NCBI RefSeq assembly: GCF_019059575.1 | Contig: NW_024881709.1 | Span: forward strand, 186,001 to 250,000 | DNA: 64,000 bases | DNA from: Amphibalanus amphitrite | Taxonomy: Eukaryota; Arthropoda; Thecostraca; Balanomorpha; Balanidae | Direction of reading: 5' to 3' | Shown here: positions 1,005 to 22,184 of the stretch, piece after piece | Layout of the letters: each line of letters starts with the position of its first letter | Position numbering within the stretch: position 1 is the first letter of the stretch | Notes under the pieces: model-generated | Seen by the model: only the letters and a program-made list of their open reading frames with translations | Databases searched by the model: none | What the model was told of the DNA's origin: nothing | Program-made: the position numbers and the translations under genes

Positions 1005-1445
1005 TGCCTCCACCACTACCCCTACCCCTACCACTACCACTACCCCTACCACTACCCCTACCACTACCACTACCACTACCCCTACCACTACTACTACCCA
1101 TACTCCTACCCCTACCACTACCCCTACCACTACCCCTACCACTGCCCCTACCGGCTACCACTACCCCTACCACTGCATCTACCACTACCACTACCACTAC
1201 CCCTACCCTACCACTACTACTACCCATGTTCCTACCCATACCACTACCCCTACCGCTACCCCTACTACTACCCCTACCACTACTACCCCTACCACTACCC
1301 CTACCACTACCCCTACCCCTACCCCTACTACTACTCCTACCACTACCCCTACCCCTACCCCTACTACTACTCCTACCACTACCCCTACCCCTACCCCTAC
1401 CCCTACCTCCTAGCACTACTACTACCCCTACCACTACCACTACCT
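1005..1445. repeat. CCCTAC/CACTAC hexanucleotide-type array
   Basis: About 440 bp are built almost only from the trinucleotide pairs CCC-TAC and CAC-TAC, with occasional CCTACTACTAC variants. All three plus-strand frames stay open because the array has almost no stop codons, giving spurious Tyr/His/Pro, Leu/Pro and Thr/Pro proteins. It separates repeat copies A and B. It is not the arthropod TTAGG or vertebrate TTAGGG telomere repeat. Confidence 0.9.
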
Positions 1446-16380: not shown

Positions 16381-17310
16381 AACTTGACGGCTCTCGATAG
16401 ATGGTAAGCCCATGTAACGAAAAGGAGTGGAGGGGCTATAAGAAAACCGAAAAATGAAGAGGTAGACACTAACGGCAGATAAGGAAGCGGACAGCAACGC
16501 AAAAATAACTGAAAGACGAAAGGAACAGCACGCCTCTTGCTAAGGCCAGACTCGCCCCCAAGAATTATATCATGCCATTTAGAACAACAAGATCACTACC
16601 GTCGAGGCGACGATAACGCCCGCCTATTGACCGATGAAGCCGACCACATCCAGTGCAGACCACCCATCGACAATAATAGGCACAGCTAGCCGCCAGAGGC
16701 CGCCCTGCCAGCGCCGAGCAACAAGCTCCAATTGCGCCGACCATCCGACATTTCCGCATTGGCGGTGGGAAATTCCGGCGCGGACGAGCGTCCAATGTCC
16801 ATTCCCCTCGTGGATCAGTGCTAATACGCCACGCCACAGGGAGTCAGCTATCTTCGAAAGACCGGATAATCTCTGTAAGTGGCTGCTAGTTCCTGTGGGC
16901 AGTCAGGCATGTCAACAAAACATCATACTGACCAAAGTCCCATATGCATAGCGTCAGCCAGTCGTCATATACGGATTGCGGAACTCAAAAATCGACACTG
17001 CAAAACATTACGATCAAGTCACGATAGCTTATGTGATGGACGCCGTCGTCGCAAATGTGTTTTTCCCGGCATATCGTCCGCTAGCCGATATATTATTTAC
17101 CCCACATTTACCCCGCTGCCCAACAGGGTAATAAATGCTGTCGACAGTCTCGGACCGGTCACCGGCGTCTGGTTACCCTCGATGACGTCAGCGTCGTGTC
17201 AGCTGGCGCCGGTGGACGGCGTGATGTCATCAGGGGGAGCGGTGGACTCGGAAAGTAAACGGCTGGCGTCATAATGTTGATCAAGACAGCCCATATTCAG
17301 CCCAGATTCA

Positions 17311-20229
17311 GCCCGGATTCAGCCCAGATTCGGGACACCTCCGATCAAGCTGAAACTCGCACACAATGTAGGCCATGACATGCCCAATCCACAGTCCAAG
17401 TCATTCGGTGGCACTCCCAGCCGTTTGACCTACAGAGGTCAGCAAAGGTCACGTGGCCCAAATTTGCACAGCAGATTGTGGCCCACCCAGTAGAGCTAGA
17501 GCGCTAAAAATGGCACCAATCGACTCGCCAGCATCTAATCTTACTTTCCCAACACTCATTTGACCTCTCAAGGTCATGCGATGACCTAAGGTCATTTGTG
17601 GGCTATGTCGAAAATACACTTGCACACATAGGTGGAGAATTGTGACCAGCTGGGGGTGCTCGGGCGCAGCAAATCCGCCGCCGCCTAGCGGTGACCTTGA
17701 CCCGCGCCGCCCGGCCGCGGCTCCAAAGCCAAGCCGGCGTGGCCGGCGTGGAATTGGGAGAGCTCGAGCACCCCCAGTCCAGCACAATTCTCCACCCGTG
17801 CTTGCACAGCAGTTTTCGAGTAGATGGATTGACCGAATTCCAAATCAAAGCACATCATCGGGTAGCCCAAAGGCCGTAGTAACTTTCCTTGAAAACTGCT
17901 TTTCGATATGTGACCCCGTTTGACCTCGGCAGGTCAAAATAAGCAAATAAACGACACTCAATACGTCGCAGCCCGGATTCAGCCCAGATTCGGGACACCT
18001 CCGATCAAGCTGAAACTCGCACACAATGTAGGCCATGACATGCCCAATCCACAGTACAAGTCATTCGGTGGCACTCCCAGCCGTTTGACCTACAGAGGTC
18101 AGCAAAGGTCACGTGGCCCAAATTTGCACAGCAGATTGTGGCCCACCCAGTAGAGCTAGAGCGCTAAAAATGGCACCAATCGACTCGCCAGCATCTAATC
18201 TTACTTTCCCAACACTCATTTGACCTCTCAAGGTCATGCGATGACCTAAGGTCATTTGTGGGCTATGTCGAAAATACACTTGCACAGCATTTTTCGAGTA
18301 GATGGATTGACCGAATTCTAAATCAAAGCACATCATCGGGTAGCCCATAGGCCGTAGTAACTTTCCTTGAAAACCGCTTTTCGATATGTGACCCCGTTTG
18401 ACCTCGGCAGGTCAAAATGTGCAAATAAACGACACTCAATACGTCGCAGCCCGGATTCAGCCCAGATTCGGGACACCTCCGATCAAGCTGAAACTCGCAC
18501 AAAATGTAGGCCATGACATGCCCAATCCACAGTCCAAGTCATTCGGTGGCACTCCCAGCCGTTTGACCTACAGAGGTCAGCAAAGGTCACGTGGCCCAAA
18601 TTTGCACAGCAGATTGTGGCCCACCCAGTAGAGCTAGAGCGCTAAAAATGGCACCAATCGACTCGCCAGCATCTAATCTTACTTTCCCAACACTCATTTG
18701 ACCTCTCAAGGTCATGCGATGACCTAAGGTCATTTGTGGGCTATGTCGAAAATACACTTGCACAGCAGTTTTTGAGTAGATGGATTGACCAAATTCCAAA
18801 TCAAAGCACATCATCGGGTAGCCCATAGGCCGTAGTAACTTTCCTTGAAAACTGCTTTTCGATATGTGACCCTGTTTGACCTCGGCAGGTCAAAATGTGC
18901 AAATAAACGACACTCAATACGTCGCAGCCCGGATTCAGCCCAGATTCGGGACACCTCCGATCAAGCTGACACTCGCACACAATGTAGGCCATGACATGCC
19001 CAATCCACAGTACAAGTCATTCGGTGGCACTCCCAGCCGTTTGACCTACAGAGGTCAGCAAAGGTCACGTGGCCCAAATTTGCACAGCAGATTGTGGCCC
19101 ACCCAGTAGAGCTAGAGCGCTAAAAATGGCACCAATCGACTCGCCAGCATCTAATCTTACTTTCTCATTACTCATTTGACCTCTCAAGGTCATGCGATGA
19201 CCTAAGGTCATTTGTGGGCTATGTCGAAAATACACTTGCACAGCAGTTTTCGTGTAGATAGATTGACCGAATTCCAAATCAAAGCACATCATCGGGTAGC
19301 CCATAGGCCGTAGTAACTTTCCTTGAAAACCGCTTTTCGATATGTGACCCCGTTTGACCTCGGCAGGTCAAAATGTGCAAATAAACGACACTCAATACGT
19401 CGCAGCCCGGATTCAGCCCAGATTCGGGACACCTCCGATCAAGCTGAAACTCGCACACAATGTAGGCCATGACATGCCCAATCCACAGTCCAAGTCATTC
19501 GGTGGCACTCCCAGCCGTTTGACCTACAGAGGTCAGCAAAGGTCACGTGGCCCAAATTTGCACAGCAGATTGTGGCCCACCCAGTAGAGCTAGAGCGCTA
19601 TAAATGGCCCCAATCGACTCGCCAACATCTAATCTTACTTTCCCAACACTCATTTGACCTCTCAAGGTCATGCGATGACCTAAGGTCATTTGTGGGCTAT
19701 GTCGAAAATACACTTGCACAGCAGTTTTCGAGTAGATGGATTGACCGAATTCCAAATCAAAGCACATCATCGGGTAGCCCATACGCCGTAGTAACTTTCT
19801 TTGAAAACCGCTTTTCGATATGTGACCCCGTTTGACCTCGGCAGGTCAAAATGTGCAAATAAACGACACTCAATACGTCGCAGCCCGGATTCAGCCCAGA
19901 TTCGGGACACCTCCGATCAAGCTGACACTCGCACACAATGTAGGCCATGACATGCCCAATCCACAGTACAAGTCATTCGGTGGCACTCCCAGCCGTTTGA
20001 CCTACAGAGGTCAGCAAAGGTCACGTGGCCCAAATTTGCACAGCAGATTGTGGCCCACCCAGTAGAGCTAGAGCGCTAAAAATGGCACCAATCGACTCGC
20101 CAGCATCTAATCTTACTTTCCCAACACTCATTTGACCTCTCAAGGTCATGCGATGACCTAAGGTCATTTGTGGGCTATGTCGAAAATACATTTGCACAGC
20201 AGTTTTCGAGTAGATGGATTGACCGAATT
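17311..20229 (+). repeat. 478-bp satellite array, direct arm
   Basis: Units begin (GCCCGGATTC) at 17311, 17971, 18449, 18927, 19405 and 19883, with the last cut at 20229. The period is exactly 478 bp except for the first unit, which is 182 bp longer because of a nested insertion. Units differ by only a few bases. Each has nine AGGTCA/TGACCT half-sites. Open frames of 63, 77 and 79 codons recur in every unit on both strands but are by-products of near-identity, not genes. Confidence 0.95.
17618..17807. mobile_element. Nested 174-bp MITE inside the first satellite unit
   Basis: Comparison with the other units shows an insertion of 174 bp (17626-17799) plus an 8-bp duplication: ACTTGCAC at 17618-17625 and GCTTGCAC at 17800-17807, one mismatch. 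The inverted ends share GGTGGAGAATTGTG and CTGGGGGTGCTCG. The 660-bp length of this unit equals 478 + 174 + 8, which confirms the limits. An 8-bp duplication suits hAT-like elements. The insert is GC-rich, unlike the satellite around it. Confidence 0.9.
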
Positions 20230-20232
20230 ATA

Positions 20233-22168
20233 GTATTGAGTGTCGTTTATTTGCACATTTTGACCTGCCGAGGTCAAACGGGGTCACATATCGAAAAGCA
20301 GTTTTTAAGGAAAGTTACTACGGCCTATGGGCTACCCGATGATGTGCTTTGATTTGGAATTCGGTCAATCCATCTACTCGAAAACTGCTGTGCAAGTGTA
20401 TTTTCGACATAGCCCACAAATGACCTTAGGTCATCGCATGACCTTGAGAGGTCAAATGAGTGTTGGGAAAGTAAGATTAGATGCTGGCGAGTCGATTGGT
20501 GCCATTTTTAGCGCTCTAGCTCTACTGGGTGGGCCACAATCTGCTGTGCAAATTTGGGCCACGTGACCTTTGCTGACCTCTGTAGGTCAAACGGCTGGGA
20601 GTGCCACCGAATGACTTGGACTGTGGATTGGGCATGTCATGGCCTACATTGTGTGCGAGTTTCAGCTTGATCGGAGGTGTCCCGAATCTGGGCTGAATCC
20701 GGGCTGCGACGTATTGAGTGTCGTTTATTTGCACATTTTGACCTGCCGAGGTCAAACGGGGTCACATATCGAAAAGCGGTTTTTAAGGAAAGTTACTACG
20801 GTCTATGGGCTACCGGATGATGTGCTTTAATTTGGAATTCGGTCAATCCATCTACTCGAAAACTGCTGTGCAAGTGTATTTTCGACATAGCCCACAAATG
20901 ACCTTAGGTCATCGCATGACCTTGAGAGGTCAAATGAGTGTTGGGAAAGTAAGACTAGATGCTGGCGAGTCGATTGGTGCCATTTTTAGCGCTCTAGCTC
21001 TACTGGGTGGGCCGCAATCTGCTGTGCAAATTTGGGCCACGTGACTTTTCCTGACCTCTGTAGGTCAAACGGCTGGGAGTGCCACCGAATGACTTGTACT
21101 GTGGATTGGGCATGTCATGGCCTTCATTGTATGCGAGTTTTAGCTTGATCGGAGGTGTCCCGAATCTGGGCTGAATCCGGGCTGCGACGTATTGAGTGTC
21201 GTTTATTTGCACATTTTGACCTGCCGAGGTCAAACGGGGTCACATATCGAAAAGCGGTTTTCAAGGAAAGTTACTACGGCCTATGGGCTACCCGATGATG
21301 TGCTTTGATTTGGAATTCGGTCAATCCATCTACACGAAAACTGCTGTGCAAGTGTATTTTCGACATAGCCCACAAATGACCTAAGGTCATCGCATGACCT
21401 TGAGAGGTCAAATGAGTGTTGGGAAAGTAAGATTAGATGCTGGCGAGTCGATTGTTGCCATTTTTAGCGCTCTAGCTCTACTGGGTGGGCCACAATCTGC
21501 TGTGCAAATTTGGGCCACGTGACCTTTGCTGACCTCTGTAGGTCAAACGGCTGGGAGTGCCACCGAATGACTTGGACTGTGGATTGGGCATGTCATGGCC
21601 TACATTGTGTGCGAGTTTCAGCTTGATCGGAGGTGTCCCGAATCTGGGCTGAATCCGGGCTGCGACGTATTGAGTGTCGTTTATTTGCACATTTTGACCT
21701 GCCGAGGTCAAACGGGGTCACATATCGAAAAGTGGTTTTTAAGGAAAGTTACTACGGCCTATGGGCTACCCGATGATGTGCTTTGATTTGGAATTCAGTC
21801 AATCCATCTACTCGAAAACTGCTGTGCAAGTGTATTTTCGACATAGCCCACAAATGACCTTAGGTCATCGCATGACCTTGAGAGGTCAAATGAGTGTTGG
21901 GAAAGTAAGATTAGATGCTGGCGAGTCGATTGGTGCCATTTTTAGCGCTCTAGCTCTACTGGGTGGGCCACAATCTGCTGTGCAAATTTGGGCCACGTGA
22001 CCTTTGCTGACCTCTGTAGGTCAAACGGCTGGGAGTGCCACCGAATGACTTGTACTGTGGATTGGGCATGTCATGGCCTACATTGTGTGCGAGTTTCAGC
22101 TTGATCGGAGGTGTCCCGAATCTGGGCTGAATCCGGGCTGAATCTGGGCTGAATATGGGCTGTCTTGA
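20233..22168 (-). repeat. 478-bp satellite array, inverted arm
   Basis: Four copies of the same 478-bp unit in reverse orientation, ending with the right terminus of the foldback element. It is close to identical to the direct arm, so single-stranded DNA or RNA from this region could form a very long hairpin. Confidence 0.95.
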
Positions 22169-22184
22169 CGGACATGGCGTCATA

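What the first reader, a model, noticed from the sequence alone, without database searches (positions are those of the whole stretch)
17971..18448. Satellite unit built around everted AGGTCA pairs with constant 4-bp spacing
Each 478-bp unit has nine AGGTCA or TGACCT half-sites, against about 0.2 expected by chance. Three pairs are TGACCT-N4-AGGTCA (spacers ACAG, CTCA, CGGC), one pair has spacing 1, and one direct repeat has spacing 4 followed by an E-box CACGTG. For example, pairs start at 18086, 18221, 18242 and 18399. AGGTCA is the nuclear-receptor half-site, and everted or direct repeats are known receptor elements. About ten units place nearly ninety half-sites in under 5 kb.
Basis: partly seen in the sequence, partly recalled or inferred. 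Interest (0 to 1): 0.85.

Follow-up and report, generated by a model that had tools for sequence, protein, structure and literature searches.

The report
Jumping DNA packed with receptor motifs
The "satellite" is a jumping DNA element (a foldback transposon) present in many copies in this animal's genome; its repeated AGGTCA motifs are real and tend to be preserved when the element spreads, and another abundant transposon group in the same genome carries them too, but which protein reads them is unknown.

Summary
In detail: each 478-bp unit has nine AGGTCA/TGACCT half-sites in the stated geometry. It is not a plain satellite. Units run 5.7 forward then 4 reversed, forming one 4,902-bp foldback DNA transposon (17274-22175) with a 9-bp target duplication. 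Of 14 copies read with both ends, 13 have exact 9-10 bp duplications (0 of 182 mismatched flank pairs). Singleton changes are not reduced; changes shared between insertions are (12 against 23.8 expected). So the sites seem to matter for spreading, not at this one place. A TTAA-inserting repeat group without detectable similarity carries such clusters too, more strongly conserved (202 of 222 kept, against 210 of 441 control hexamers), with clusters in the copies read often about 160 bp apart. Everted pairs number 224,523 genome-wide against 1,274 for the reversed control. I favour a host AGGTCA-binding protein of nuclear-receptor class, exploited by transposons; transposase binding is the main rival. 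No binding or hormone response could be tested; the transposase and the species are unidentified.

The parts
17265..17273 (.). left copy of the 9-bp target-site duplication GGCGTCATA
17274..17308 (+). left tip, type A (ATGTTGATCAAGACAG...), followed by the outer 11-bp CAGCCCAGATT repeats
   Evidence: the tip pattern ATGTNNRTCAAGACAGCC has 187 + 173 genome matches, reversed control 0
17309..20229 (+). left arm: 5.7 forward 478-bp units
17619..17626 (.). left 8-bp duplication CTTGCACA of the nested insertion
17627..17800 (.). nested 174-bp MITE-like insertion in the first unit, imperfect inverted ends CATAGGTGGAGAATTGTG / CACGGGTGGAGAATTGTG
17801..17808 (.). right 8-bp duplication CTTGCACA of the nested insertion
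18086..18115 (.). half-site cluster 1: everted pair (4-bp spacer) plus direct repeat (4-bp spacer), overlapping CACGTG at 18110-18115
18221..18254 (.). half-site cluster 2: everted pair with 4-bp spacer and everted pair with 1-bp spacer
18399..18414 (.). half-site cluster 3: everted pair with 4-bp spacer; its second half-site is AGGGCA in 10 of 15 units of the more diverged CCA-tip subfamily
20230..20232 (.). centre of the foldback, 3 bp between arms; arm phases 349/474 of the unit, so a 125-128 nt loop if folded
20233..22140 (-). right arm: 4 reversed 478-bp units (the innermost lacks 4 bp)
22141..22175 (-). right tip, type B (ATGTCCGTCAAGACAG... on the minus strand)
22176..22184 (.). right copy of the 9-bp target-site duplication GGCGTCATA

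Best explanation
SHOWN: 17274-22175 is one insertion of a foldback DNA transposon family whose arms are arrays of 478-bp units and whose insertion duplicates 9-10 bp; no coding member was found. SHOWN, modest effect: the AGGTCA half-sites are constrained, and the constraint is visible in variants shared between insertions, not in singleton changes. SHOWN in the copies read: a group of TTAA-inserting elements without detectable sequence similarity to the unit carries half-site clusters at a similar spacing (often about 160 bp), much more strongly conserved. INFERRED: the half-sites bind a protein the elements need in order to spread. INFERRED, less certain: because elements with two different kinds of target duplication use the same hexamer, that protein is a host AGGTCA-binding factor of the nuclear-receptor class acting in germ cells (for transcription, accessibility or nucleosome phasing of the element), rather than either element's own transposase. 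My split: foldback transposon 0.97; sites serve propagation 0.75; the reader of the sites is a host nuclear-receptor-class protein 0.45.
For: Foldback: arms 17969-19876 and 20233-22140 are 98% complementary; 13 of 14 copies read with both ends have exact 9-10 bp duplications at the ATGT tips, 0 of 182 mismatched flank pairs; a paralogous empty site for the L034 copy has CCTGACCCA once. Multicopy: 360 tip matches, reversed control 0. Constraint in the 478 family: 0.58% against 1.30%; shared variants 12 against 23.8 expected, p 0.0024, singletons 36 against 31.6; with the L024/L031 haplotig pair reduced to one, 12 against 23.3, p 0.0038. Second group: half-sites kept 202 of 222 against 210 of 441 permuted hexamers, 14 of 14 pairs among 10 loci. 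Its 4-bp TTAA duplication is read at three insertions into 478 units. Cluster spacing: 68 of 100 spacings within 130-185 bp, random-placement mean 17%, maximum 28%; in the window element the clusters lie 139, 169 and 170 bp apart. Genome-wide everted pairs within 30 bp 224,523 against 1,274 reversed control. The genome has zf-C4 receptor domains.
Against: No binding, expression or chromatin data. The autonomous partner of the 478 family was not found, so its transposase's site is unknown. The 478 arrays may be a very diverged homologue of the TTAA-group arrays, in which case the two groups are not independent witnesses. The effect in the 478 family is modest (12 against about 24 variants); a circular shift of the nine-site pattern does as well in 3.8% of 477 shifts; for variants in 5 or more loci the deficit is not significant (2 in half-sites, 31 elsewhere, p 0.20); one half-site (position 138) varies at 6.2% at one base. 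Singletons may include assembly errors, which would weaken the singleton contrast. Only copies found by the best-scoring matches were fetched. 49 of the 100 spacings come from 12 homologous 1-kb loci; without them it is 30 of 51. At two of the three TTAA insertions the unit consensus does not read TTAA at the target (CCAA, CTAA), so the targets must have been variants. AGGTCA in the rest of the window is unremarkable (50 sites, tied fourth among 120 permuted hexamers).
Confidence: 0.5

Rival explanations
1. The half-sites are subterminal binding sites of the family's own transposase (MULE type), multiplied by the tandem units as in Galileo.
For: Foldback-like elements with repeated transposase sites are known: Galileo THAP sites in tandem TIR repeats (PMC3688188, passages). 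The 9-10 bp duplication fits MULEs, and the genome has at least 111 MULE-domain matches, several in uninterrupted frames of 457-514 aa. Depletion of shared but not singleton variants is what transposase sites should show. The less diverged subfamily completes the third 4-bp everted pair (AGGGCA to AGGTCA), and it is the commoner one (CCA tips are 11 of the 100 tips listed out of 360).
Against: Similar motif clusters fill TTAA-inserting elements, which should need a different transposase. Of four MULE loci read, two were poor in half-sites (1 and 4 sites); the two rich ones share sequence with the TTAA group, so their richness is not evidence. No close 478-type tip was seen in the four 4.3-kb stretches, only partial matches with up to 3 substitutions in two of them.
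Confidence: 0.3
2. Neutral: the motifs are inherited passengers of repeats that happened to be rich in AGGTCA.
For: Clustering in both everted and inverted orientation could follow from repeat amplification alone; the 478-family effect is modest. Two of the nine sites (118 and 431) also share the flank AAACGG, so some internal duplication is possible.
Against: Half-sites are nearly invariant between TTAA-group copies 80-88% alike and depleted of shared variants in the 478 family. Most of the nine sites of a unit share only the hexamer, not their flanks.
Confidence: 0.12
3. A hormone-response satellite that regulates nearby host genes at this locus.
For: AGGTCA is a receptor half-site (recalled; PMC1785376, start of abstract in the listing, gives RGKTCA motifs); host receptor domains exist.
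Against: The array is a mobile element with many copies; singletons in half-sites are not depleted (36 against 31.6), so the sites as a group are not kept after insertion.
Confidence: 0.05

Closest known systems
Tm1, Mutator/Foldback family of root-knot nematodes (PMC3169594, abstract and passages)
   Different: Tm1 repeats are about 14 bp and a transposase-coding member is known; here units are 478 bp, the copies read are units and tips only apart from nested insertions, and no autonomous member was found.
Tetris of Drosophila virilis (PMC4079207, abstract, section 10 and section 16 part 1)
   Same: Foldback whose arms carry long tandem units (about 220 bp) that look like satellite DNA; 8-10 bp duplications; apparently non-autonomous; unit number varies.
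   Different: Tetris has flanking, inner and middle domains and has seeded long satellite arrays; AGGTCA arrays are not mentioned in the parts read.
Galileo (PMC3688188, passages)
   Same: Long internally repeated arms carrying several DNA-binding sites of one protein.
   Different: P-element superfamily with a THAP domain; Galileo's duplication length was not checked here.
Alu-borne DR2 retinoic acid response elements (PMC1785376, title and start of abstract in a search listing)
   Same: Transposable elements spreading nuclear-receptor-type half-sites.
   Different: Alu is a retrotransposon (recalled); here two DNA-transposon groups carry clusters, often about 160 bp apart.

Membership tests
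Foldback transposon (structural class) | long, internally repeated inverted arms | tested here: met
Foldback transposon (structural class) | target-site duplication and dispersed copies | tested here: met
   13 of 14 exact, paralogous empty site, 360 tips
Mutator (MULE) superfamily | 8-10 bp, most often 9-bp, duplication (as in the papers) | tested here: met
   9 bp in 9, 10 bp in 4, none in 1 of 14 copies
Mutator (MULE) superfamily | mobilised by a MULE-domain transposase | tested here: inconclusive
   MULE genes exist in the genome but none was linked to these tips (four loci)
Satellite DNA | head-to-tail array not bounded as a mobile element | tested here: not met
   arms inverted, tips and duplications at both ends
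Nuclear-receptor response element | paired AGGTCA half-sites in direct, inverted or everted arrangement | tested here: met
   direct repeat with 4-bp spacer and everted pairs present; whether a 4-bp everted pair is a preferred receptor geometry was not tested
Nuclear-receptor response element | bound by a receptor in vivo and hormone-responsive | not testable with these tools
   needs CUT&RUN, gel shift and RNA-seq
piggyBac-like (the TTAA group) | TTAA duplication | tested here: met
   TTAA on both sides of three insertions into 478 units, L024, L026, L047; the unit consensus at those spots reads CCAA, CTAA and TTGA (TTAA in the common 401A variant)
piggyBac-like (the TTAA group) | piggyBac-type transposase | not tested
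   not searched

The most novel reading that the evidence does not exclude
One host AGGTCA-binding protein has been exploited by unrelated DNA transposons, which carry its sites in clusters at about one-nucleosome spacing; hundreds of thousands of sites now make a genome-wide platform (or sink) for that protein, phasing nucleosomes over transposons and helping them spread in germ cells.
Probability: 0.3. Interest if true: 0.87.

Novelty: new variant of a known kind. Interest (0 to 1): 0.62.

Why it matters
If a host receptor reads these sites, transposons have rewired where a hormone-type regulator sits across a whole genome, and the shared half-site clusters in two element groups give a direct test of host-factor exploitation by DNA transposons. 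If a transposase reads them, it would help explain what the very long repeated arms of foldback elements are for, a question the Galileo authors raise (passages).

Tried and rejected
Plain satellite: rejected. Association of AGGTCA with MULE genes: at first taken as support for transposase sites, then dropped, because the rich blocks at two of four MULE loci are related to the abundant TTAA group. Autonomous partner: not found; only the first 100 of 360 tips are listed, so most could not be held against the MULE list. Motif in viral contigs: two scans, no hits. Rfam at gathering scores and ARAGORN on the window: nothing. Species: a barnacle was guessed and looked up; the papers held give 609 and 613 Mb for Amphibalanus amphitrite (PMC8270832, PMC8917513, passages) against 807.6 Mb here, and passages of PMC8416341 and PMC11331182 did not help, so the species is left unnamed. 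Literature: ten searches. Of those with AGGTCA (25, 26, 101, 112), none listed a report of AGGTCA arrays in DNA transposons: 25 found none, 26 and 101 one paper each, 112 listed 15 of 171; most subscription journals are not held.

Rows dropped: L033 (mirror of L029, same flanks); L024 and L031 are the same insertion and both stayed, corrected; of 32 loci scanned, 28 showed a junction and 26 were used (L033 and L048, with a 286-bp centre gap, left out); matches under 150 bp. CCA-tip loci L045-L048 and L049 are not among the 312 units.

Full report
OBSERVATION. The window holds 138 AGGTCA sites on both strands against 32.5 in shuffles.

WHAT IT IS. The units do not make one tandem array. They run forward for 5.7 copies and then reversed for 4 copies, with arms 98% complementary. 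The outer tips are ATGTTGATCAAGACAG on the left and ATGTCCGTCAAGACAG on the right (read inward), flanked on both sides by GGCGTCATA. The element is therefore 17274-22175, 4,902 bp. The window's genome is held as 807,550,619 bases in 2,644 contigs; a search with the unit gave 196 matches, a lower bound, and the tip pattern 187 + 173 matches, reversed control 0. I fetched 28 regions and later 5 more. Apart from nested insertions, the copies read consist of units and tips (part of the listing was cut). Of 14 copies with both tips in the fetched DNA, 9 have exact 9-bp and 4 exact 10-bp duplications and one (L017) has none; none of 182 mismatched flank pairs has 8 or more. Four of the later copies with both tips, read by eye, show 9 of 9, 8 of 9, 8 of 9 and 10 of 10. 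The L034 copy sits in a repeat whose relative on contig C1813 shows the target CCTGACCCA once. This is a foldback DNA transposon, non-autonomous as far as seen. The duplication length and the asymmetric tips match the Mutator/Foldback family Tm1 (passages).

HOW THE ARRAYS BEHAVE. Of 26 junctions between arms used, I count 20 distinct classes; one (349/474) is shared by the window copy, L013, L014 and L030, which differ in unit number and target site. Each junction leaves an offset of at least 47 nt, which random phases would give in all 26 with probability about 0.004; taking only 20 classes as independent it is about 0.013 (0.806 to the power 20). Sampled pairs of units are hardly more alike within an element (2.0%, 323 pairs) than between elements (2.3%, 7,677 pairs), so arrays seem to be inherited as blocks.

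ARE THE HALF-SITES CONSTRAINED? The ten window units alone do not decide it (1 of 38 variable columns, 4.3 expected, p 0.061). Over 312 units of at least 150 bp from 26 loci, half-site columns differ from consensus at 0.58% and other non-CpG columns at 1.30%; nine random hexamers do as well in 0.67% of 20,000 trials, a circular shift of the whole pattern in 3.8%; the everted-pair spacers are ordinary (1.28%). Variants seen once are not depleted (36, expected 31.6). Variants shared by two or more loci are (12, expected 23.8, p 0.0024). For three or more loci it is 4 in half-sites and 85 elsewhere (p 0.010), for five or more 2 and 31 (p 0.20). The share of shared variants among shared plus single ones is 0.25 in half-sites against 0.43 in random sets (p 0.012). 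Dropping the duplicate haplotig leaves 12 against 23.3, p 0.0038; dropping two more loci 11 against 20.4, p 0.011. New changes thus seem to hit half-sites freely, but few pass on. In the more diverged CCA-tip subfamily the ninth half-site is AGGGCA in 10 of 15 units, while the commoner subfamily has AGGTCA; within that subfamily half-sites differ at 2.4% and other positions at 3.6%. The direction of the AGGGCA/AGGTCA change is inferred from divergence.

THE SAME MOTIF ELSEWHERE. TGACCT-N4-AGGTCA occurs 25,793 times in the genome, reversed control 36. Everted pairs within 30 bp: 224,523 against 1,274. Inverted pairs: 184,365 against 1,875. Several starts can share one partner, and the assembly holds both haplotypes in places, so these are counts of matches, not of independent sites. 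All 12 everted-pair sites that I fetched on contig C1 (chosen for the spacers TTTCA and TTTCG) and the 6 loci of three other recurring contexts are related by similarity to a dispersed group with TTAACCC...GGGTTAA ends; one exact tip has 2,062 + 2,155 copies, control 0. Three members inserted into 478 units show TTAA on both sides, replacing four unit bases that read CCAA, CTAA and TTGA (or TTAA in a common variant) in the consensus. The 478 unit shows only short matches to this group, mostly centred on the motif (best E 0.002 over 19 bp, 0.013 over 17 bp). In 14 pairs among 10 loci aligned over 700 bp or more and under 90% alike, 202 of 222 half-sites are kept against 210 of 441 non-overlapping permuted hexamers, and base identity is higher in half-sites in 14 of 14. 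A looser set of local alignments gave 240 of 248 directed pairs in the same direction and 6 in the other, but seeds may favour conserved motifs there. In the flanks of the fetched 478 elements AGGTCA is the commonest of its permuted hexamers (197 in 50.9 kb), whereas in the rest of the window it is ordinary (50 in 59.1 kb).

SPACING. In this group 68 of 100 distances between cluster centres fall within 130-185 bp (random mean 17%, maximum 28% of 300 trials), with pair distances peaking near 160, 330 and 500 bp; in the window element clusters lie 139, 169 and 170 bp apart. 49 of the 100 distances come from 12 homologous loci and are not independent; the rest give 30 of 51, and contig C49 only 6 of 16. 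The spacing is close to a nucleosome repeat (recalled), but no chromatin data exist here.

MECHANISM. Constraint that shows between insertions means the half-sites help the element to spread. A transposase site would explain the 478 family alone. The same hexamer in a group with TTAA duplications is more simply explained by a host protein, and AGGTCA is the half-site of nuclear receptors (recalled), of which the genome has 77 zf-C4 matches, many in pairs of equal score as expected of two haplotypes. The weak point is independence: since half-sites outlast other sequence in the TTAA group, the 478 arrays could be its distant relatives. I could not test binding.

VERDICT. A real and well-described motif array, misread as a satellite: it is a foldback transposon, a new variant of a known kind. 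The wider finding, two transposon groups carrying constrained half-site clusters at similar spacing, is the more interesting result.

Noticed in passing
window 17619-17808: A 174-bp MITE-like insertion with an 8-bp duplication CTTGCACA sits in the first unit; the 8-bp duplication and CA...TG ends suggest a hAT-type element (recalled).
   Followed up: partly
L034:1462-3601: A second foldback-like array: 153-bp units, forward then reversed, rich in half-sites, next to TTAA-group sequence.
   Followed up: partly
L021:1-620, L019:5947-7001, L036:about 575-1640: Other tandem or inverted arrays with periods of about 133-154 bp carrying one to six half-sites per unit.
   Followed up: no
L062:3284-3517: AGGTCA direct repeats at a 10-bp period, about one helical turn, beside a TTAA-group copy.
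   Followed up: no
L065, L066, L069, L070 (contig C1): TGACGTCA (CRE-like) palindromes lie between half-sites in these TTAA-group loci.
   Followed up: no
window 1012-1444: Degenerate ACCCCT/ACCACT simple repeat giving a tyrosine/proline-rich open frame; probably not a gene.
   Followed up: no
contigs C945/C94 and C1565/C359: Mirror-image copies with identical flanks (L029/L033, L024/L031) show that the assembly holds both haplotypes in places, so copy numbers are inflated.
   Followed up: partly
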